Notes under the pieces: generated by a model
Database searches by the model: none
Told to the model about the DNA's origin: nothing
The model's input: only the letters and a program-made list of their open reading frames with translations
Origin: Micromonospora sp. NBC_00421
Lineage (GTDB): Bacteria > Actinomycetota > Actinomycetes > Mycobacteriales > Micromonosporaceae
DNA length: 64,000 nucleotides
NCBI RefSeq assembly: GCF_036017915.1
Contig: NZ_CP107929.1
Location: forward strand, 4,778,001 to 4,842,000
Direction of reading: 5' to 3'
Position numbers and translations under genes: made by a program
Shown: positions 468-15,597 of the stretch, piece by piece
Numbering within the stretch: position 1 is the stretch's first letter
Layout: the number at the start of each line of letters is the position of its first letter

Positions 468-2999
468 TCAGGAGGCGCCGTCGGCGCGGAGGGGGAAGAC
501 GTTCGACTCGGCGGAGTCCCGCAGCGAGCCGAGCACCGCGCCGATCTTGTCGGCCGGCATCGGCTTGAAGAAGTGGTAGCCCTGGGCGGCGGTGCAGCCC
601 AGCTCGGCCAGGGCGGCCCGCTGTTCGGCCGTCTCCACCCCCTCGGCGACCACCCGCAGCCCCAACTCGTGGGCGAGACCGACAGTCGCCCGGACGATCG
701 CCGCCGCCTCCGGCGAGTCGGCCATCCGGATCACGAAGGAGCGGTCCACCTTCAGCTCGTCCACCGCGATCCGGGTCACGAACGACAGCGACGAGAACCC
801 GGTGCCGAAGTCGTCGACAGCCAACTGGACGCCCATCGTGCGCAGGGTGGCCAGCACCTCGTCGATCACCTCCAGCTCGCTCATCATCACCGTCTCGGTG
901 ATCTCCAGGACCAGCTTGTGCGGCGGCACCTGGTGCCGGCGCAGCGCGTCGGCGATCTCCGCCGGCAGTCGGGGGTCGAGCAGGCTGCGCGCCGAGAGGT
1001 TCACCGAGATCGGCACGTCCAGCCCGTCCCGGGCCCACGCGGCGGCCACCGAAAGCGCCTTGTCCAGCACGTACCGGGTGAAGGTGCCGAGCTGCTCGCT
1101 GTGCTCCACCGGGCGGATGAAGTCGGCCGGGCCGAGCCAGCCCCGCCGGGGATGCTGCCAGCGGATCAGCGCCTCCACCCCGGTCGGGGCACCGGTGGCC
1201 AGGTCGACCGCGGGTTGCAGGGCCAGCACCAGCTGGTCGTCGGCCTGCAACGCCTCCCGCAGCTCGGCCAGCAGGGCCAACTGGTCGGTGCTGGCGGCGT
1301 CCCGGGTGCTGTCGTACGCGGCGACGCTGCCGCCGCCCTCCTTTGCCTGGTACATGGCGATGTCGGCCCGGCGCAGCAGCTCGGTCAGGTCGGCGGTGCC
1401 CGCCCCGGCCACCACCACCCCCACCGAGACCTCGACCGACATCCGCACCCCGGCCACCTCGGTCGGTGCGGCCAGCCGCTCGGCGATCTCCCGGGCCTGC
1501 CGCAGCGCGTACGCCATCGGGGCGGTCCGGTCGCCGATCACCGGGACCGACGTCAGCAGCAGGGCGAACTCGTCGCCGCCGAGCCGGGCGAGCAGGTCAC
1601 CGGGGCGGGCCAGGGTGCCCAGCCGGTTGCCGGTGAGCCGCAGCAACTGGTCGCCGGCGGCGTGCCCGAGCGTGTCGTTGACCTCTTTGAACTGGTCGAT
1701 GTCGAGCAGCAGCAGGGCCACCGGGTGGTCGTGGGCGAGCTGCCGCAGCGCCTGGTCGCCCTTGGTCAGCATGGCCGTCCGGTTGACCAGCCCGGTCAGC
1801 GCGTCGTGCACCGCGTCGTACGACGAGCGGGCGCTGACCAGCCGCAGCTCCCGGTGGGTCGCCGCGTCGTGCAGGGCCGCGGCCAACGCGTCGGAGTAGG
1901 CCGCCAGCGCGTCCCGTTCCCGGTCGTTCGGCGGCCCGGAGGCGGGGAACCGGACCCGCAACTGTCCGACCTGGACGTCGCCGACGACGAGCGGCCGGGC
2001 CAGTTCGCAGGCGTCCGGGGTCGCCCCGCCGGGCGGCCCGGCCTCCCGGTCCCGCACCTGACCCGAGGAGTCCCCCCGGTAACGCCGCCAGCGGCCGTCG
2101 CCCCGGGCCACGTCGACGTCCACCAGCTCGGCGCCGAACAGGGTCAGCGCGCCGGTCACCGCGGCGGTGGCCACCCCCCGCTCGTCGAGCTGGTTGAGGG
2201 CGGCGGTCGCCTCGGCGAACGCCCGCCAGGTGCGCTGTTCCTGGTCGGCGCGGAGCCGGTGCCGGTAGGTCTGCTGGAGCAACCAGAGCAGCGGTGGCAG
2301 CAGCAAAAGCCAGCGTGGGTCGATCTCCAGCAGCGCCACCACGACCAGGCCGACCACCACGTTGCCGACGAACATCAACACCTTGCCGCGCAGCGCGACG
2401 AGCAGCGGCGGGCCGACCGCCGCGCCGTGCCGCAGGGCCAGGGTGACCCCGCCCAGCCCGGCGGTGGTGAACAGGTAGGTGACCGCACCGACGACGAGGG
2501 CGGGTACGAGCGTCGGGGTGGGACCGGCCAACAGCGGCGCACCGAACGCGGTGGCGACGGCGACGGCGAGCGCGGTGGCCGCCGTCAACGAGGTGGCGAT
2601 CCGCAACAGCTCCACCGGGGTACGCCGGTCGGCGGCCAGCGACATGGCCGTCCAGGCTGCGCCGGTGCCGAGCAGCGCGGCCGCCGGTAACCAGCCGGCC
2701 GGGGCCAGGTAGAGGCAGACGATCAGCGCGGCCTCGCCCCAGGTGATGCTCACCATGCCGGTGGCGGTGCGGAACCTCAGCCGGGCGAGTTGGGACACCG
2801 CGAACACCGCGACGGCGATGCCGAACCGGCCGGCTGGCGGGAGCGGGTCGTCGGGCGGCAGGGCGGTCGGCAGGCGCAGGCCGATCACCACCGCCATCAA
2901 CGCGGTCAACGTCACGGCGGCGGTGAGGACGCGCACCCGCGGCGGGGCGTGCGAAGGCGTCGGCCCGTCGTCGGATGCGCCGGTCCGGCCGGAGGTCAC
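468..2999 (-). CDS. Membrane-anchored GGDEF-EAL protein (c-di-GMP turnover)
   Basis: A cyclic di-GMP enzyme of about 843 residues. The N-terminal third holds several hydrophobic segments, then a linker, a GGDEF domain with intact LARLGGDEF near residue 475, and an EAL domain with GVEALIRW near 605. The metal and catalytic residues expected of an active phosphodiesterase are visible (SVNLSAR, EITET, DDFGTG, LKVDRSF, AEGVE, AQGY). Both synthesis and hydrolysis are therefore possible; which dominates cannot be told. The start is taken as the GTG at 2999, whose GTGA overlaps the stop of a mini-ORF with a strong ribosome site; an in-frame GTG at 3080 would add 27 arginine-rich residues. Leu104 is a rare TTA codon at 2688-2690, so translation should depend on the UUA tRNA at 29054. 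A DosR-like box lies upstream at 3087-3100. Confidence 0.93.
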   Translation of the reverse strand: MTSGRTGASDDGPTPSHAPPRVRVLTAAVTLTALMAVVIGLRLPTALPPDDPLPPAGRFGIAVAVFAVSQLARLRFRTATGMVSITWGEAALIVCLYLAPAGWLPAAALLGTGAAWTAMSLAADRRTPVELLRIATSLTAATALAVAVATAFGAPLLAGPTPTLVPALVVGAVTYLFTTAGLGGVTLALRHGAAVGPPLLVALRGKVLMFVGNVVVGLVVVALLEIDPRWLLLLPPLLWLLQQTYRHRLRADQEQRTWRAFAEATAALNQLDERGVATAAVTGALTLFGAELVDVDVARGDGRWRRYRGDSSGQVRDREAGPPGGATPDACELARPLVVGDVQVGQLRVRFPASGPPNDRERDALAAYSDALAAALHDAATHRELRLVSARSSYDAVHDALTGLVNRTAMLTKGDQALRQLAHDHPVALLLLDIDQFKEVNDTLGHAAGDQLLRLTGNRLGTLARPGDLLARLGGDEFALLLTSVPVIGDRTAPMAYALRQAREIAERLAAPTEVAGVRMSVEVSVGVVVAGAGTADLTELLRRADIAMYQAKEGGGSVAAYDSTRDAASTDQLALLAELREALQADDQLVLALQPAVDLATGAPTGVEALIRWQHPRRGWLGPADFIRPVEHSEQLGTFTRYVLDKALSVAAAWARDGLDVPISVNLSARSLLDPRLPAEIADALRRHQVPPHKLVLEITETVMMSELEVIDEVLATLRTMGVQLAVDDFGTGFSSLSFVTRIAVDELKVDRSFVIRMADSPEAAAIVRATVGLAHELGLRVVAEGVETAEQRAALAELGCTAAQGYHFFKPMPADKIGAVLGSLRDSAESNVFPLRADGAS

Positions 3000-10338: not shown

Positions 10339-10998
10339 GTGTTCCTTCGCCGCATGAAGGCCGAGATGATCAGCCCCGACCAGGCCCTGCCCGGCCGCCC
10401 GATCGCGTTGCCGATCGGTGACCGGCACGAGGTCCTGCCGTCGTCGCTGAAGGGCCCGTTCCCGGAGGGTGCCCAGGTCGCCGTCTTCGGCATGGGTTGC
10501 TTCTGGGGTGCCGAGCGACTGTTCTGGACGCTGCCGGGGGTGCTCACCACGTCGGCCGGTTACGCGGGCGGCTACACCGCCAACCCGACGTACGAGGAGG
10601 TCTGCTCGGGGATGACCGGGCACGCCGAGGTGGTCCAGGTGGTCTACGACCCGGCGTTGATCGGCTACGAGGACCTGCTCAAGGTGTTCTGGGAGAACCA
10701 CGACCCGACCCAGGGGCTGCGCCAGGGCAACGACGTCGGCAGCCAGTACCGCTCGACGATCTACACCACCACCGACGGACAACTGGCCACCGCGCAGGCG
10801 TCCCGGGACGCGTTCGCACCGATCGTGGCGCGGGCCGGCAAGGGTGAGATCACCACCGAGATCGCCCCGCTGGGCGACTACTTCTTCGCCGAGGACTACC
10901 ACCAGCAGTACCTCGCCCCGACGAAGAACCCAGGTGGTTATTGCAACCATGGCCCCAATGGCATGACTTGCCCGATTGGTGTAGCCAAGACCAACTAG
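10339..10998 (+). CDS. msrA: Peptide methionine sulfoxide reductase MsrA with an exchanged C-terminus
   Basis: MsrA reduces methionine-S-sulfoxide in oxidised proteins. The catalytic cysteine is in GMGCFWGAE (about residue 54), with the family motifs [19 protein letters not shown] and [11 protein letters not shown], and resolving cysteines in the C-terminal tail ([12 protein letters not shown]). The GTG start has GAGAGGAG upstream. Odd point: the last 24 codons have only 14 of 24 G/C third positions, unlike the rest of the gene, and a second high-GC copy of the same C-terminus lies downstream at 11696-11776, after the toxin-antitoxin genes. The gene body is native but its end was supplied by the inserted cassette. 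Still a complete, probably active protein. Confidence 0.96.
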
Positions 10999-11006
10999 CC
11001 ACCACA

Positions 11007-11034
11007 GGCCGCCGGGCCTCACGGCCCGGTGGCC
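11007..11034 (+). terminator. Hairpin terminator after the exchanged msrA end
   Basis: A 12-bp stem (11007-11018 with 11023-11034, one G-T wobble) and the loop TCAC, starting 9 bp after the msrA stop. It lies inside the inserted cassette and would separate msrA transcription from the toxin-antitoxin promoter that follows. Confidence 0.7.
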
Positions 11035-11074
11035 TCGGCCGAAATTTGGTACAGACTTCACGCCAGAAACTACC

Positions 11075-11080
11075 TATACT
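11075..11080 (+). promoter_or_regulatory. -10 box of the toxin-antitoxin operon, probably leaderless
   Basis: TATACT ends 6 bp before the ATG at 11087. With the usual spacing, transcription would start at or next to the A of the ATG, and no ribosome-binding sequence precedes it, so the mRNA is predicted leaderless. The surrounding 40 bp (AAATTTGG, AACTACCTATACTTCG) are markedly A/T-rich for this genome. No good -35 box is seen; TTCACG is too close. Confidence 0.55.
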
Positions 11081-11086
11081 TCGAGC

Positions 11087-11371
11087 ATGACTGTCGTGCC
11101 GTTCACCGATGCCCGCAACCGCCTTTCGGAACTCATCGACGAGGTGGCCTCGACCCATGAGCGGATAGAGATCACCAGGCACGGCCACGCCGCCGCTGTG
11201 CTCATTTCCGCCGACGACCTCGCCGCGTTGGAAGAGACCCTGGAGGTTCTCTCCAGCGCCGAGGCCATGCGGCAACTTGGTGAATCCAAGGCCGCCGTCG
11301 AAGCCGGCGACGTCCTCGACGCCGACGAGCTCGCAGCGCTGATGGCAAAGCGATCGAAGCAGGCAAGGTGA
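11087..11371 (+). CDS. Phd/YefM-type antitoxin
   Basis: A 94-residue protein with the Phd/YefM N-terminal DNA-binding fold: the start VPFTDARNRLSELIDEV, the strand ITRHGHAAAVLIS, and ADDLAALEETLEVL leading into an acidic C-terminal tail that would wrap the toxin. It should neutralise the RelE-like toxin and repress their shared promoter. It overlaps the toxin start by 4 bp (GTGA). Third codon positions are less G/C-rich than in neighbouring core genes (codons such as ATA, CTT, GAA, ATT), consistent with transfer. Confidence 0.9.
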   Translation: MTVVPFTDARNRLSELIDEVASTHERIEITRHGHAAAVLISADDLAALEETLEVLSSAEAMRQLGESKAAVEAGDVLDADELAALMAKRSKQAR

Positions 11372-11658
11372 CCGGTCCGAGCCCCGGCCGCTACCGACTT
11401 CAGGTCACCGGCCCGGCCGCTCGCGCCTTGGCCGGACGACTACCAGCGAAGATCTCCACGGCCGTCTACGAGTTCATCACCACCGCTCTCCTCGACAACC
11501 CGCATCGCGTGGGCAAACGACTTCTTCTGCCGCCGTTCGAAGGCACCTGGTCGGCCAGGCGCGGCACGTACCGCGTCCTCTACCAGATCGACGAGGACGA
11601 CCGCGTCGTGACCGTGACGGCAATCGAACACCGCGCCGACGCTTACCGGTCGCGTTGA
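11368..11658 (+). CDS. RelE/ParE-superfamily toxin
   Basis: A 96-residue basic protein with the RelE-fold pattern: YRLQVTGPAARAL, a helix through IYEFITTALLDNP-like residues, then GKRLLLPPFEGTWSARRG and YRVLYQIDEDDRVVTV with IEHRADAY near the end. The arginines and final tyrosine resemble catalytic residues of RelE mRNA interferases, so ribosome-dependent mRNA cleavage is more likely than gyrase poisoning, but this is inference. The start is a GTG overlapping the antitoxin stop by 4 bp. It ends 38 bp before the orphan msrA tail. Confidence 0.9.
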   Translation: MTGPSPGRYRLQVTGPAARALAGRLPAKISTAVYEFITTALLDNPHRVGKRLLLPPFEGTWSARRGTYRVLYQIDEDDRVVTVTAIEHRADAYRSR

Positions 11659-11695
11659 TTCAAGGCGGAAATCAGTAGTGCACCGTTCGCCAGGA

Positions 11696-11776
11696 TCGAA
11701 GAACCCGAACGGCTACTGCAACCACGGACCGAACGGGCTGAGCTGCCCGGTCGGGGTGGCGCGTACGGCCGGCTGA
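11696..11776 (+). pseudogene. Displaced original 3' end of msrA
   Basis: In frame this reads [19 protein letters not shown] and ends VARTAG-stop, matching the C-terminus of the MsrA at 10339 ([18 protein letters not shown]) nearly residue for residue. It has no start codon or ribosome site, and 23 of 25 third positions from the AAG codon on are G or C, so it looks native while the upstream copy looks foreign. It is best explained as the original end of msrA pushed away by insertion of the toxin-antitoxin cassette. Confidence 0.85.
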
Positions 11777-11974: not shown

Positions 11975-13765
11975 ATGTGCGGACTTGCGGGAGAGTTCCG
12001 CCGTGACGGTTCCCGTGCCGATGTGTCGGCGGTGGAACGCATGGCGGCCACGATGAGTGACCGGGGGCCCGACGACAGTGGGGTCTGGTCCCAGGGGGCG
12101 GTCGCCCTCGGGCACCGCCGCTTGAAGATCATCGACCTCTCCGCCGCCAGCGGACAACCGCTCGTCGACCCGGCCGCCGGGCTCACCGGCGTGTTCAACG
12201 GCTGCATCTACAACTACCGCGAGCTGCGCCAGGAGTTGCTGGCCTTGGGGCACCGCTTCTTCTCCTCCGGCGACAGCGAGGTGGTGCTCAAGGCGTACGC
12301 CGAGTGGGGGCTCGACTTCGTCGACCACCTGATCGGCATGTTCGCCGTCGCGATCACCGAGCGGGACACCGGCCGCCTCGTGCTGGCCCGGGACCGGCTC
12401 GGCATCAAGCCGCTCTACCTGGCCGAGACGCCGGGCGTGGTGCGCTTCGCCAGCACCCTGCCCGCCCTGCTGGCCGGTGGCGGGATCGACACCACGATCG
12501 ACCCGGTGGCGCTGGCCCACTACCTCAGCTTCCACAGCATCGTGCCGCCGCCGCGTACCATCCTGCGCGGCGTCGCCAAGCTGCCCCCGGCCACCGTACG
12601 GGTCTACGAGCCGGACGGCCGCACCCACGAGCACGTCTACTGGGACCCGTCGTTCACCCGGGACGCGTCCCGCGCCGACTGGTCGGAGCGGGACTGGCAG
12701 GACGCCCTGCTGGAGTCGTTGACCACCGCGGTCCGCCGCCGGATGGTCGCCGACGTCCCGGTGGGCGTGCTGCTCTCCGGTGGCCTGGACTCCAGCCTGG
12801 TGGTGGCGCTGCTGGCCGGCGAGGGGCAGACCCGTTCCGGGCTGTCCACCTTCTCCATCGGCTTCGACGCGGTCGGCGGCCGGGAGGGCGACGAGTTCGT
12901 CTACTCCGACCTGGTGGCGAAGACCTTCGGCACCGACCACCACCAGCTCAAGGTGGCCGCCGGTGATCTGGTGCCGCCGCTGGAGGCGGCCGTGGCCGCG
13001 ATGAGCGAGCCGATGGTCAGCCACGACTGCGTCGCCTTCTATCTGCTCAGCCAGGAGGTGTCGAAGCACGTCAAGGTGGTCCAGTCCGGCCAGGGCGCGG
13101 ACGAGATCCTCGGCGGCTACCACTGGTACCCGCCGCTGGCCGGCATCGACCGGGAGCAGGCGCTCGACACGTACGCCAAGGCGTTCTTCGACCGGGACGC
13201 GGCCGGGCTGGCCCGGGTGCTCGACCCGGTGTGGCTGGCCGACGGCGACCCGGCGCGCGAGTTCGTGGCCGCCCACCTGGGCCGGGCCGGGGCGCAGACC
13301 GCCGTCGACGCCGGCCTGCGGATCGACACCCAGATCATGCTCACCGACGACCCGGTGAAGCGGGTCGACAACATGACCATGGCGCACGGCCTGGAGGCCC
13401 GGGTGCCGTTCCTCGACCACGAGTTCGTGGAGCTGGCGGCGAGCTGCCCGCCCGAGCTGAAGCTGGCACAGGGCGGCAAGGGCGTGCTCAAGGAGATCGG
13501 CCGCCGGGTCCTGCCGCACGAGGTGATCGACCGCCCCAAGGGCTACTTCCCGGTCCCCGGCCTGACCCACCTGGAGGGCAAGCTCCTCGACCGGGTCCGC
13601 GACGCGCTCGACGCACCGCAGGCCCGCCGCCGTGGCCTGTTCCGCGCCGACTACGTCGATGCGCTGCTCGCCGATCCGAACGCCGAACTCACCCCGTTGA
13701 ACGGAAACAAACTGTGGCAACTGGGACTCCTGGAAATGTGGCTCCAGAGCCACGGAATCGACTGA
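11975..13765 (+). CDS. asnO: N-acetylglutaminylglutamine amidotransferase (AsnB-like)
   Basis: An asparagine-synthase-type enzyme of 596 residues that amidates the N-acetylglutaminylglutamine dipeptide, the last step in making the osmolyte NAGGN. The N-terminal glutaminase begins MCGLAGEFRRDG with the catalytic Cys2, so the ATG at 11975 must be the start (a TTG 9 bp upstream would block the nucleophile). The synthase domain carries the PP-loop LLSGGLDSSLV (about residue 268). The NAGGN assignment rests on the next two genes, which are the dedicated synthetase and the NAGGN-system M42 peptidase. On its own it could pass for a general AsnB. There is a 2-bp gap to ngg. Confidence 0.9.
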   Translation: MCGLAGEFRRDGSRADVSAVERMAATMSDRGPDDSGVWSQGAVALGHRRLKIIDLSAASGQPLVDPAAGLTGVFNGCIYNYRELRQELLALGHRFFSSGDSEVVLKAYAEWGLDFVDHLIGMFAVAITERDTGRLVLARDRLGIKPLYLAETPGVVRFASTLPALLAGGGIDTTIDPVALAHYLSFHSIVPPPRTILRGVAKLPPATVRVYEPDGRTHEHVYWDPSFTRDASRADWSERDWQDALLESLTTAVRRRMVADVPVGVLLSGGLDSSLVVALLAGEGQTRSGLSTFSIGFDAVGGREGDEFVYSDLVAKTFGTDHHQLKVAAGDLVPPLEAAVAAMSEPMVSHDCVAFYLLSQEVSKHVKVVQSGQGADEILGGYHWYPPLAGIDREQALDTYAKAFFDRDAAGLARVLDPVWLADGDPAREFVAAHLGRAGAQTAVDAGLRIDTQIMLTDDPVKRVDNMTMAHGLEARVPFLDHEFVELAASCPPELKLAQGGKGVLKEIGRRVLPHEVIDRPKGYFPVPGLTHLEGKLLDRVRDALDAPQARRRGLFRADYVDALLADPNAELTPLNGNKLWQLGLLEMWLQSHGID

Positions 13766-13767
13766 CC

Positions 13768-15597
13768 GTGAACGAGACCCTCGCGACCGGCACGGCCCGT
13801 ACCGACCGGGAGCGGGTGCTCGGCCGTCGCCGGGAACGGATCGGCCCCGGCGGCGATCCGGTCGCGCCCGGAGCCGCCCCGGAGCCCCGCCGGGAACCCG
13901 CCGGCCCGTCCGACGTGGTGCTGGACTGCGGCTGGGGGCGACTGGTCTTCGGCCAGACCTTCCACGAGCAGGTCGCGGTGGCCCACGTGCTGCGCTCCGA
14001 GGCGGCCGGCGCCCGGGACATCTGCATCTACCTGCGGGATCCGCACGTGCTGGTGTCCCGGCTGCCCGACGAGCTGTTCATCGACCCGTCGCTGACCTAC
14101 CGGCTGCCGCTGGGTGAGCGCCGGCCCGCCGCCACCGACCGGATGGAGATCCCGGGGCTGGTCGTCCGGCCGCTGCGGGACGCCGACGACGCGGACGCGG
14201 TCAACCGGATCTACGCCCGCAACGGCATGGTCACCGCGCCGGTCGAGGTGCTCGTCGACAACGCCCGCACCGAGCGGTTCCTGCACCTGGTGGCCGAGGC
14301 GAGCACCGGGGAGATCGTCGGCACCATCACCGGTGTCGACCACGTCGCGGTCTTCGGCGACCGGGAGAACGGCGCCAGCCTCTGGTGTCTGACCGTGGAC
14401 TTCAACACCGCGCCGCCCGGCACCGGTCAGGCCCTGCTCACCGAGCTTGCCGACCGGCTGGACGCGCGGGGACGCGCCTTCGTCGACCTGTCGGTGCTGG
14501 CCGAGAACTCCGGCGCGATCCGGCTCTACGAGCGGCTGGGCTTCCACCGCACCGGCACGCTCTGCGTCAAGCGGAAGAACCCGATCAACGAGCGGCTGTT
14601 CCTGCCGGCCACCCCGGCGGGCTACGACGAGCTGAACCCGTACGCGAAGATCGTCGCCGACGAGGCGATGCGGCGCGGCATCCGGGTGGAGGTCACCGAC
14701 GCCCACTGGGGTGAGCTGCGGCTGACCAACGGCGGCCGGACGATCGTCACCCGCGAGTCGCTGTCCGAGCTGACCTCGGCGGTGGCGATGAGCCGCTGCG
14801 ACGACAAGCGGGTCACCCGGCGGATCCTCACCGAGGCGGGCCTGTCGGTGCCGCGTGGCCGGACCGCCACCGGTGACGCCGACGACCTGGCCTTCCTCAC
14901 CGACATCGGCCAGGTGGTGGTCAAGCCGGCCCGGGGTGAACAGGGCAACGGCATCACAGTCGGGGTGCGTACCGCCGAGGCGTTGACCGCCGCCGTCGAG
15001 CTGGCCCGCCGGTTCTGCCCCGACGTGCTGATCGAGGAGCTGCGCGCGGGCGAGGATCTGCGGGTCATCGTCATCGACCACGAGGTGGTGGCCGCCGCGG
15101 TGCGCCGACCGGCGCAGATCACCGGGGACGGCGTGCACGACGTCACCGAGCTGATCGCGCGGCAGAGCCGGCGGCGGGCCGCCGCCACCGGTGGCGAGTC
15201 CCGGATCCCGATCGACGAGATGACCCGCGAGGTGGTGGCCGAGGCCGGGCACCGGATGCACGACGTGCTTCCCGAGGGGCAGGTGTTGGCGGTGCGTCGG
15301 ACGGCGAACCTCCACACCGGTGGCACAATCCACGACGTGACGGCCGAACTGCACCCGACGATCGCCACCGCCTGCGTGGCGGCGAGTCGGGCCCTGGACA
15401 TCCCGGTGACCGGGCTGGACCTGCTGGTCCCCGCCCCCGACCAGCCCGAGCACGTGTTCATCGAGGCCAACGAGCGGCCGGGGCTGGCCAACCACGAGCC
15501 CCAGCCCACCGCCGAGCGCTTCGTGGACCTGCTCTTCCCGGGCACCCGCGCCCCGCAGCGCCTCTGGAGCCCGGCCGGGCCCGGAGGGGTCGCGTGA
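13768..15597 (+). CDS. ngg: N-acetylglutaminylglutamine synthetase (GNAT + ATP-grasp)
   Basis: A two-domain enzyme of 609 residues expected to acetylate glutamine and ligate a second glutamine, giving the NAGGN precursor. The N-terminal half contains a GNAT acetyltransferase domain (from VVRPLRDADDADAVNRIYAR to SGAIRLYERLGFHRTGTL, about residues 130-270). The C-terminal half is an ATP-grasp ligase of the cyanophycin/glutathione type (VVVKPARGEQGNG near 390; final FIEANERPGLANHEP). The GTG at 13768 follows the asnO TGA by 2 bp; the frame is open much further upstream, but that is antisense noise inside asnO. The gene overlaps the peptidase by 4 bp (GTGA). Confidence 0.92.
   Translation: MNETLATGTARTDRERVLGRRRERIGPGGDPVAPGAAPEPRREPAGPSDVVLDCGWGRLVFGQTFHEQVAVAHVLRSEAAGARDICIYLRDPHVLVSRLPDELFIDPSLTYRLPLGERRPAATDRMEIPGLVVRPLRDADDADAVNRIYARNGMVTAPVEVLVDNARTERFLHLVAEASTGEIVGTITGVDHVAVFGDRENGASLWCLTVDFNTAPPGTGQALLTELADRLDARGRAFVDLSVLAENSGAIRLYERLGFHRTGTLCVKRKNPINERLFLPATPAGYDELNPYAKIVADEAMRRGIRVEVTDAHWGELRLTNGGRTIVTRESLSELTSAVAMSRCDDKRVTRRILTEAGLSVPRGRTATGDADDLAFLTDIGQVVVKPARGEQGNGITVGVRTAEALTAAVELARRFCPDVLIEELRAGEDLRVIVIDHEVVAAAVRRPAQITGDGVHDVTELIARQSRRRAAATGGESRIPIDEMTREVVAEAGHRMHDVLPEGQVLAVRRTANLHTGGTIHDVTAELHPTIATACVAASRALDIPVTGLDLLVPAPDQPEHVFIEANERPGLANHEPQPTAERFVDLLFPGTRAPQRLWSPAGPGGVA

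What the first reader, a model, noticed from the sequence alone, without database searches (positions are those of the whole stretch)
10922..11776. Toxin-antitoxin cassette inside msrA that carries its own replacement msrA 3' end
The 10-bp direct repeat CGAAGAACCC bounds about 775 bp holding, in order, an alternative MsrA C-terminus, a terminator hairpin, a leaderless-type promoter, a Phd/YefM antitoxin and a RelE-like toxin. After the second repeat the original MsrA C-terminus survives as an orphan. By hand count the upstream end has 14 of 24 G/C third positions, the orphan 23 of 25, so the upstream one is foreign. The element keeps its target gene working, as tRNA-targeting integrative elements do, but has no recombinase. 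A TA module that uses a conserved protein gene as a docking site would be a distinct way of spreading.
Basis: partly seen in the sequence, partly recalled or inferred. Interest (0 to 1): 0.85.

Follow-up and report, generated by a model that had tools for sequence, protein, structure and literature searches.

The report
Mobile gene cassettes docking in msrA
A small toxin-antitoxin cassette has slotted into the end of a housekeeping gene and supplied that gene with a new end; it is one of many interchangeable cassettes that use this same slot in related bacteria, apparently moved by a phage-type enzyme carried by other elements.

Summary
A 775-bp unit sits between two copies of CGAAGAACCC in the 3' end of msrA. 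It carries a replacement MsrA tail, a hairpin, a Phd/YefM antitoxin and a ParE/RelE-type toxin; the native tail is left downstream as an orphan. Joining the flanks recreates the uninterrupted gene of relatives.

The interpretation must be widened. Of 142 (of 160) congeneric genomes examined, 32 show cassette features at this site, with ten kinds of cargo. Of 13 second tails found by tail sequence alone, 11 are preceded by the same ~27-bp half-site whatever the cargo. Tandem arrays occur, and cassettes recur in other genera of the family. The toxin-antitoxin tree contradicts the trees of both flanking genes.

Four ~10-kb elements at the same site, and probably a fifth in another genus, encode a phiC31-type large serine integrase starting 33-35 bp inside the same right end, so msrA is that integrase's attB. 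The cassettes look like minimal CIME-like units (att half-sites plus cargo) mobilised in trans. The docking belongs to the att sites, not to the toxin-antitoxin module. Closest precedents are SCC elements, CIMEs and Dehalococcoides ssrA islands. Recombination itself is untested.

The parts
10339..10923 (+). msrA body (195 codons), left (B) side of the attachment site
   Evidence: PF01625/TIGR00401; continuous with relatives without the insert
10922..10931 (+). left copy of the direct repeat CGAAGAACCC; core of attL (core AAGAACCC starts at 10924)
10924..11698 (+). cassette unit, core to core, 775 bp
   Evidence: similarity to the same cassette in Actinoplanes siamensis begins exactly at the core
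10924..10998 (+). replacement MsrA 3' end brought by the cassette (P' side of attL)
   Evidence: 49-51 of 75 identical to the native tail of five relatives; keeps the Cys pair
11006..11035 (+). hairpin, probable terminator after msrA
   Evidence: fold -33.4 kcal/mol, z -4.7
11075..11080 (+). TATACT, probable -10 box of a leaderless promoter
   Evidence: sequence reading; untested
11087..11371 (+). Phd/YefM-family antitoxin, 94 aa
   Evidence: PF02604, TIGR01552
11368..11658 (+). ParE/RelE-superfamily toxin, 96 aa
   Evidence: PF05016
11672..11698 (+). right end of the cassette: 27-bp P half-site
   Evidence: shared with cassettes of other cargo; 21/26 to the right end of the LSR element in G069
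11697..11706 (+). right copy of the direct repeat; core of attR (core starts at 11699)
11699..11776 (+). orphan native msrA 3' end (B' side of attR)
   Evidence: 72 of 75 identical to the tail of empty relative L007
11975..13765 (+). downstream flank: N-acetylglutaminylglutamine amidotransferase (called asnB in notes and scripts), used as phylogenetic control
   Evidence: TIGR03104

Best explanation
The msrA 3' end is the attB of a phiC31-type large serine integrase. The window's TA unit is a minimal non-autonomous cassette bounded by that integrase's half-sites. As a circle it would carry attP (P half 11672-11698, core AAGAACCC, P' half = the replacement tail). Recombination with attB gives attL (msrA body joined to the replacement tail, gene kept working) and attR (P half joined to the orphan tail). 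Integrase is supplied in trans by elements of the kind seen in G069 and G209; the TA pair is cargo that probably stabilises the cassette. In many cassettes the P' half has become almost identical to the native tail, so insertion re-creates an attB-like site beside the msrA body and arrays can grow there, newest cassette first. Shown: structure, empty site, shared right ends, LSR at the site, cargo diversity, arrays, movement of the TA independent of the flanks. Inferred: excision and integration by the LSR in trans, the renewed attB, insertion polarity, TA addiction.
For: Empty site. 32 of 142 genomes have a cassette feature: 21 a second tail, 20 a P half-site. Ten kinds of cargo in the genus and more outside. 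Right end: of 13 second tails found with a core/tail pattern, 11 have the half-site; the half-site pattern gave 18 hits in 17 of 160 genomes and 0 control hits, two of the 18 away from msrA; over 273 pairs of right ends with different cargo, identity is 0.26-0.33 further in than 30 bp, then 0.47, 0.58, 0.71 up to the core. LSR elements at msrA in G069, G086, G151, G156, and LSR plus half-site plus tail in G209 of another genus, integrase starting 33-35 bp from the core; its phage relatives are Streptomyces phage integrases including phiC31, 31-35%. Junctions of the four congeneric LSR elements are most symmetric about the same AA among the offsets tried. TA tree against flank trees: TA data reject the flank tree (AU p 1.3e-5), joined flanks reject the TA tree (8e-5), both flanks alone reject it too. 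YCII cassette 92.9% against msrA 75.2% between a MAG and G144; TA 80-97% aa in four genomes of another genus where msrA is 71-73%. Similarity between cassettes starts within 2 bp of the core. G063 and G010 share the second cassette (YCII) but differ in the first.
Against: No excision, circle or integration has been observed. LSR genes of this kind are rare (4 of 160 congeners) and none (E<=1e-60) is in the window's genome or the other four TA genomes of the genus, so movement today may be rare or past. Of nine cassette half-sites tested, attR is the best-matching place in the G086, G151 and G156 stretches for only 2, 3 and 0. Some cargo loci lack the half-site: AbiEii (G073) has a tail repeat only, beta-carbonic anhydrase (G138) only the core region, and eight loci are recognised by cargo alone. 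11 of 31 loci with a long msrA-asnB gap show no recognised cassette feature. Most of the 25 right ends were collected by tail or half-site matching, so that rise is partly selection. The window's own junction is less symmetric (0.46, tied with another centre) than those of the LSR elements (0.54-0.69).
Confidence: 0.78

Rival explanations
1. The cassettes are dead relics: larger integrase elements inserted at msrA, then internal deletion removed the integrase and left one cargo gene between attL and attR (CIMEs by decay). They are inherited vertically or lost.
For: This is the described origin of CIMEs (PMC5704250, passages). Decay is visible: G101 (by eye), G135, G140, G029 and G057 carry partial cassettes or tails. 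LSR elements occupy the same site.
Against: Shared similarity inward of the right end stops after about 30 bp instead of running on into LSR-element sequence. The same cassette recurs in another genus and in different array positions, and the TA tree rejects descent with the flanks.
Confidence: 0.15
2. Cassettes spread by homologous recombination of msrA-region DNA after transfer; the site-specific step happened once per cassette, long ago.
For: Flanking genes are conserved and could serve as arms; msrA tails are repeated.
Against: Both flanks keep a common tree that the TA tree contradicts; in A. siamensis the matching unit begins at the core and lies second in an array; between the MAG and G144 msrA is only 75% identical, poor substrate for homologous exchange.
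Confidence: 0.1
3. Illegitimate insertion of a TA operon with a fortuitous 10-bp repeat and a partial duplication of msrA (no site-specific system).
For: The window alone would allow it.
Against: Recurrence at one site with different cargoes and a shared right half-site; the inserted tail is 72% identical to the native one, not a recent duplicate.
Confidence: 0.02

Closest known systems
Dehalococcoides ssrA-specific genomic islands (McMurdie et al. 2011, PMC3146451; passages read)
   Same: Serine recombinase, tandem islands bounded by repeats of a conserved gene's 3' end, a 15-bp motif beside the repeat, and 15 of 31 islands without an integration module that the authors suggest might be CIMEs.
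   Different: Target is tmRNA; 20-bp repeat; CcrB-like DsiB with DsiA in a six-gene integration module. Here the target is a protein gene whose last ~75 bp are supplied by the cassette, the integrase is phiC31-like, and units are about 0.5-1.5 kb with one gene or one TA operon in most.
CIMEs (cis-mobilizable elements) and accretion (PMC5704250, passages read)
   Different: The cases I recall use tyrosine integrases and are much larger; here constant ends with interchangeable single cargoes.
SCC/SCCmec in rlmH (recalled) and the Enterococcus cassette chromosome (PMC6222049: abstract, outline and section 10)
   Same: Large serine recombinases; ECC inserts like SCC; multiple attR sites in 16 of 32 ECCs; SCC sits at the 3' end of a conserved protein gene (recalled).
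   Different: Larger elements that carry ccr genes (size recalled); here most units lack a recombinase and are gene-sized.
Integron gene cassettes (search listings with abstract starts only; otherwise recalled)
   Same: Gene-sized cassettes, arrays at a fixed site, TA cargo, probable polarity.
   Different: The site-linked recombinase is a serine recombinase, ends are a half-site and an msrA tail, the window's TA has its own probable promoter, and the site is a housekeeping gene.
Integrases of Streptomyces phages phiC31, TG1 and others
   Same: Large serine recombinase, 31-35% identity; att sites with imperfect symmetry.
   Different: No phage record reached 60% identity and no viral contig with a relative was found; attB in msrA is not one I know for them (recalled).

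Membership tests
Integrated element of a large serine integrase at msrA attB | attL and attR share only a short core; empty attB restored when flanks are joined | tested here: met
   10-bp repeat; joined flanks 94.1% to L007 over 986 bp
Integrated element of a large serine integrase at msrA attB | half-site equal to that of an integrase-bearing element at the same attB | tested here: met
   window P half 21/26 (G069) and 20/26 (G209), best place in each stretch, next best 17; 18/26 in G086 and G151 (next 17); not the best place in G156
CIME | no integration or transfer genes, att sites retained | tested here: met
   the two ORFs with family matches in the unit are the TA pair; no recombinase match
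CIME | mobilised in cis or trans by a related element | not testable with these tools
   only indirect: trees and distribution
SCC | ccr recombinase family and rlmH target | tested here: not met
   target is msrA; the integrase was not compared with Ccr directly, its phage relatives include phiC31
Integron cassette | tyrosine integrase IntI and attC sites | tested here: inconclusive
   ends are core plus 27-bp half-site and msrA tail, and the recombinase found at the site is a serine recombinase; no search for intI or attC was made
Type II toxin-antitoxin (Phd/YefM with ParE/RelE) | overlapping antitoxin and toxin genes of these families | tested here: met
   PF02604 and PF05016 above curated cut-offs, 4-bp overlap
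Type II toxin-antitoxin (Phd/YefM with ParE/RelE) | toxicity and neutralisation | not testable with these tools
   needs expression assays

The most novel reading that the evidence does not exclude
Micromonosporaceae host a serine-integrase counterpart of the integron: a family-wide pool of gene-sized, often toxin-antitoxin, cassettes that dock by trans-acting phiC31-type integrase at the end of msrA, each bringing a working MsrA tail that doubles as a renewed attB, so that arrays grow at the gene, newest cassette first.
Probability: 0.5. Interest if true: 0.9.

Novelty: new variant of a known kind. Interest (0 to 1): 0.8.

Why it matters
It would be a route of gene spread in a family of actinomycetes in which single genes, not islands, are the mobile unit and a conserved protein gene is the shelf. 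It gives a natural panel of att sites for a phiC31-type integrase and a testable answer to how TA modules spread without their own transposition genes. The coding constraint on the cassette's left end would explain how an integrase site could renew itself.

Tried and rejected
TA as the mobile agent: rejected, because other cargoes use the same ends. Tyrosine integrase, my first guess (note): dropped when searches showed a large serine recombinase. Phage source: 13 viral-contig stretches matched a peptide pattern but none encodes a relative of the LSR; 14 phage records have one, all below 60% identity. Plasmid relatives of the toxin exist in Rhodococcus, Prescottella, Mycobacterium and others, up to 70.6% over 71% of its length; their context was not examined. 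The 11.5-kb insert of G137 carries what look by eye like transposase and reverse transcriptase genes and no LSR relative. The looser family-wide pattern (148 of 354 genomes) gives many three-mismatch hits and its backward control also rings; its list of places was cut, so later genomes of the family are not covered. Outside the genus the listed hits with 0-1 mismatch lie in ten genomes, nine at an msrA tail and one (G296) not; of six further listed places with two mismatches, one (G206, chosen by eye) is also at msrA and five (G184 second contig, G195, G214, G263, G283) were not followed (the MAG G299 was read as L164/L165). In G209 the fetched stretch holds LSR, half-site and tail but not the msrA body. 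The MAG array first looked like five cassettes; two have the half-site, the other tails carry fragments of msrA itself and may be duplications. Literature on msrA as an attachment site: searches returned nothing, 67 one paper unrelated by its title, 38 listed 20 of 129, none about it by title (open-access library only); others gave the analogues cited.

Full report
What is there. msrA (10339-10998) is interrupted after codon 195 by a unit of 775 bp, measured core to core (10924-11698). The unit supplies a replacement tail, a strong hairpin, a Phd/YefM antitoxin (11087-11371), a ParE/RelE-superfamily toxin (11368-11658) and a 27-bp right end (11672-11698). The native tail remains as an orphan to 11776. 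The inserted tail has 13 of 23 codons ending in G or C, the orphan 21 of 23 and the msrA body 185 of 196. Joined at the cores, the window's flanks match the uninterrupted locus of G004 at 94.1% over 986 bp; its tail matches the orphan at 72 of 75 positions and the inserted tail at 50 of 75. A cysteine pair (recycling role recalled) is kept in 148 of 149 MsrA tails read, the inserted one included; the exception is frameshifted, and seven genomes are in that count twice.

Scale. I examined the msrA locus of 142 of the 160 genomes of the genus; the other 18 were not fetched (7 listed, the rest beyond its cut list). In 64 the next conserved gene follows msrA after 192-411 bp, in 31 after 783 bp or more, and in 47 it was not in the fetched stretch. 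Cassette features (a second tail, the right-end half-site, or cargo homologous to a cassette) were found in 32 of 142: in 0 of the 64 (which leave no room for one), 20 of the 31 and 12 of the 47; 21 have a second tail and 20 a half-site. The eleven loci with a long gap and no recognised feature are unexplained; one of them (G101) shows toxin remnants by eye.

Cargo. In the genus: the window's TA pair (5 genomes), a YCII-domain protein (11), an AbiEii-type pair (4), GNAT acetyltransferase (4, one a remnant), a membrane protein (2), YxiG-like (2, one a remnant), two orphan families (2 each, one pair only 45% alike), a 99-aa protein and a beta-carbonic anhydrase. Outside the genus: RHH-MazF pairs (RHH match below its cut-off), a MazG-domain protein, an Arc-like/Fic-Doc pair in a MAG, a weakly methyltransferase-like protein beside an RHH-MazF pair, and again the AbiEii pair, orf44, YCII and the window's own TA. 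Toxin-antitoxin pairs are conspicuous but not exclusive. Arrays of two occur, for example YxiG then YCII (G063), GNAT then YCII (G010), YCII then orf50 (G072), RHH-MazF then Phd-ParE (Actinoplanes siamensis).

The ends are constant. A pattern for core and tail alone found 13 second tails in the loci; 11 of them are preceded by the half-site (0-1 mismatch), those of G073 and G138 are not. The half-site pattern gave 18 hits in 17 of 160 genomes with no control hit; two of the 18 (G109 and a second hit in G137) are away from msrA. For 25 right ends compared in 273 pairs of different cargo, identity is at background (0.26-0.33) further than 30 bp inside, rises to 0.47, 0.58 and 0.71 towards the core and is 0.89 in it; most of these ends were collected by tail or half-site matching, so the rise is partly selection. 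When the same cassette is compared in two settings, similarity starts at or within 2 bp of the core: window 586-1438 (counted from the msrA start) with the second cassette of A. siamensis, and G072 1187-1774 with G040 584-1169. So the unit that moves is core, tail, cargo, half-site.

The integrase. Elements of about 10 kb at the same place in G069 and G086 encode a large serine recombinase (545 aa in G086; PF00239 and PF07508) that starts 33-35 bp from the core, just inside the half-site; G151 and G156 have the same arrangement. In another genus G209 has the integrase (63%) next to half-site and tail. In the genus 7 of 160 genomes have a relative at E<=1e-60; four have one 66% or more identical, at msrA, the remaining copies are 40-44% and elsewhere. 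Phage relatives are integrases of Streptomyces phages including phiC31 and TG1, 31-35%. Junctions of the four congeneric LSR elements are most symmetric about the same AA among the offsets tried (no shuffle control). Of nine cassette half-sites, attR is the best-matching place in the G069 stretch for 8 (two ties) and in the G209 stretch for 9 (one tie), but in G086, G151 and G156 only for 2, 3 and 0; the window's gives 21 and 20 of 26 in G069 and G209, next best 17. That subtype is the likelier mobiliser. The window's genome has one PF07508 recombinase, far away and not a close relative.

Movement. The toxin at 88% identity or more is present in 5 of 160 genomes, each time at msrA; the next relatives are at most 57% identical. 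In those five genomes the TA tree is ((G050,G135),G000,(G129,G140)) while msrA body, downstream gene and both together give ((G050,G129),G000,(G140,G135)); TA data reject the flank tree (AU p 1.3e-5), the joined flanks reject the TA tree (8e-5), and each flank alone rejects it too, although single flanks leave one or two other topologies open. G129 and G140 share 95.6% in the TA genes and 84% in both flanks. The TA is also at msrA in four genomes of another genus, 80-97% in protein where msrA is 71-73%. The YCII cassette of a MAG is 92.9% identical to that of G144 while msrA is 75.2%. The TA cassette therefore moves independently of its neighbours.

Mechanism. Shown: everything above. Inferred: the LSR recombines the cassette junction with msrA in trans; the TA pair makes loss costly. 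Also inferred: because the P' half must encode the MsrA tail, many cassettes have left ends nearly identical to the native site (27-30 of 30 positions in 23 of the 32 loci, 21-25 in seven including the window, 19 and 17 in the two LSR elements), so insertion re-creates an attB-like site next to msrA. G063 and G010 (msrA 95.7% identical) share YCII as second cassette but differ in the first, as expected if new cassettes enter next to msrA; this is one case. Gene conversion or amelioration could also make left ends alike.

What is known. Serine-recombinase islands at a gene's 3' end with tandem and integrase-less members are known for ssrA in Dehalococcoides (PMC3146451); SCC (recalled) and ECC (PMC6222049) are related, and the CIME concept covers integrase-less units (PMC5704250). 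I found no paper on msrA as such a site (open-access library, titles only where papers were listed). I therefore call it a new variant: gene-sized cassettes with constant ends and interchangeable cargo, on a protein gene, with a phiC31-type integrase.

Limits. Nothing was tested at the bench. 

Noticed in passing
window 11975-15597: The genes downstream are an N-acetylglutaminylglutamine amidotransferase (TIGR03104) and an ORF that looks by eye like an acetyltransferase/ATP-grasp protein; possibly an osmoprotectant dipeptide locus (recalled).
   Followed up: no
L043 (G101), oriented 660-785 from the msrA start: By eye, remnants of the same toxin gene follow an inserted-type MsrA tail and hairpin: a decayed TA cassette.
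   Followed up: partly
L048 7671-7760 (G111, another contig than its msrA): A 30-codon piece of the msrA 3' end, including the left side of the site, lies away from msrA.
   Followed up: no
L164/L165 (MAG, Micromonosporaceae): Several msrA 3' fragments alternate with YCII, Arc/Doc and AbiE-like genes over about 5 kb; only two have the half-site.
   Followed up: partly
L092 (G137): 11.5-kb insert between msrA and an orphan tail, with what look like transposase and reverse transcriptase genes and no LSR relative.
   Followed up: partly
L157, L158, L159 (G009, G020, G065): Related LSRs (41-44%) at other sites; their attachment genes were not identified and might hold cassettes of their own.
   Followed up: no
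L166 117-704 (Micromonospora musae): An AbiEii-like stretch (33%) upstream of msrA, outside the cassette site.
   Followed up: no
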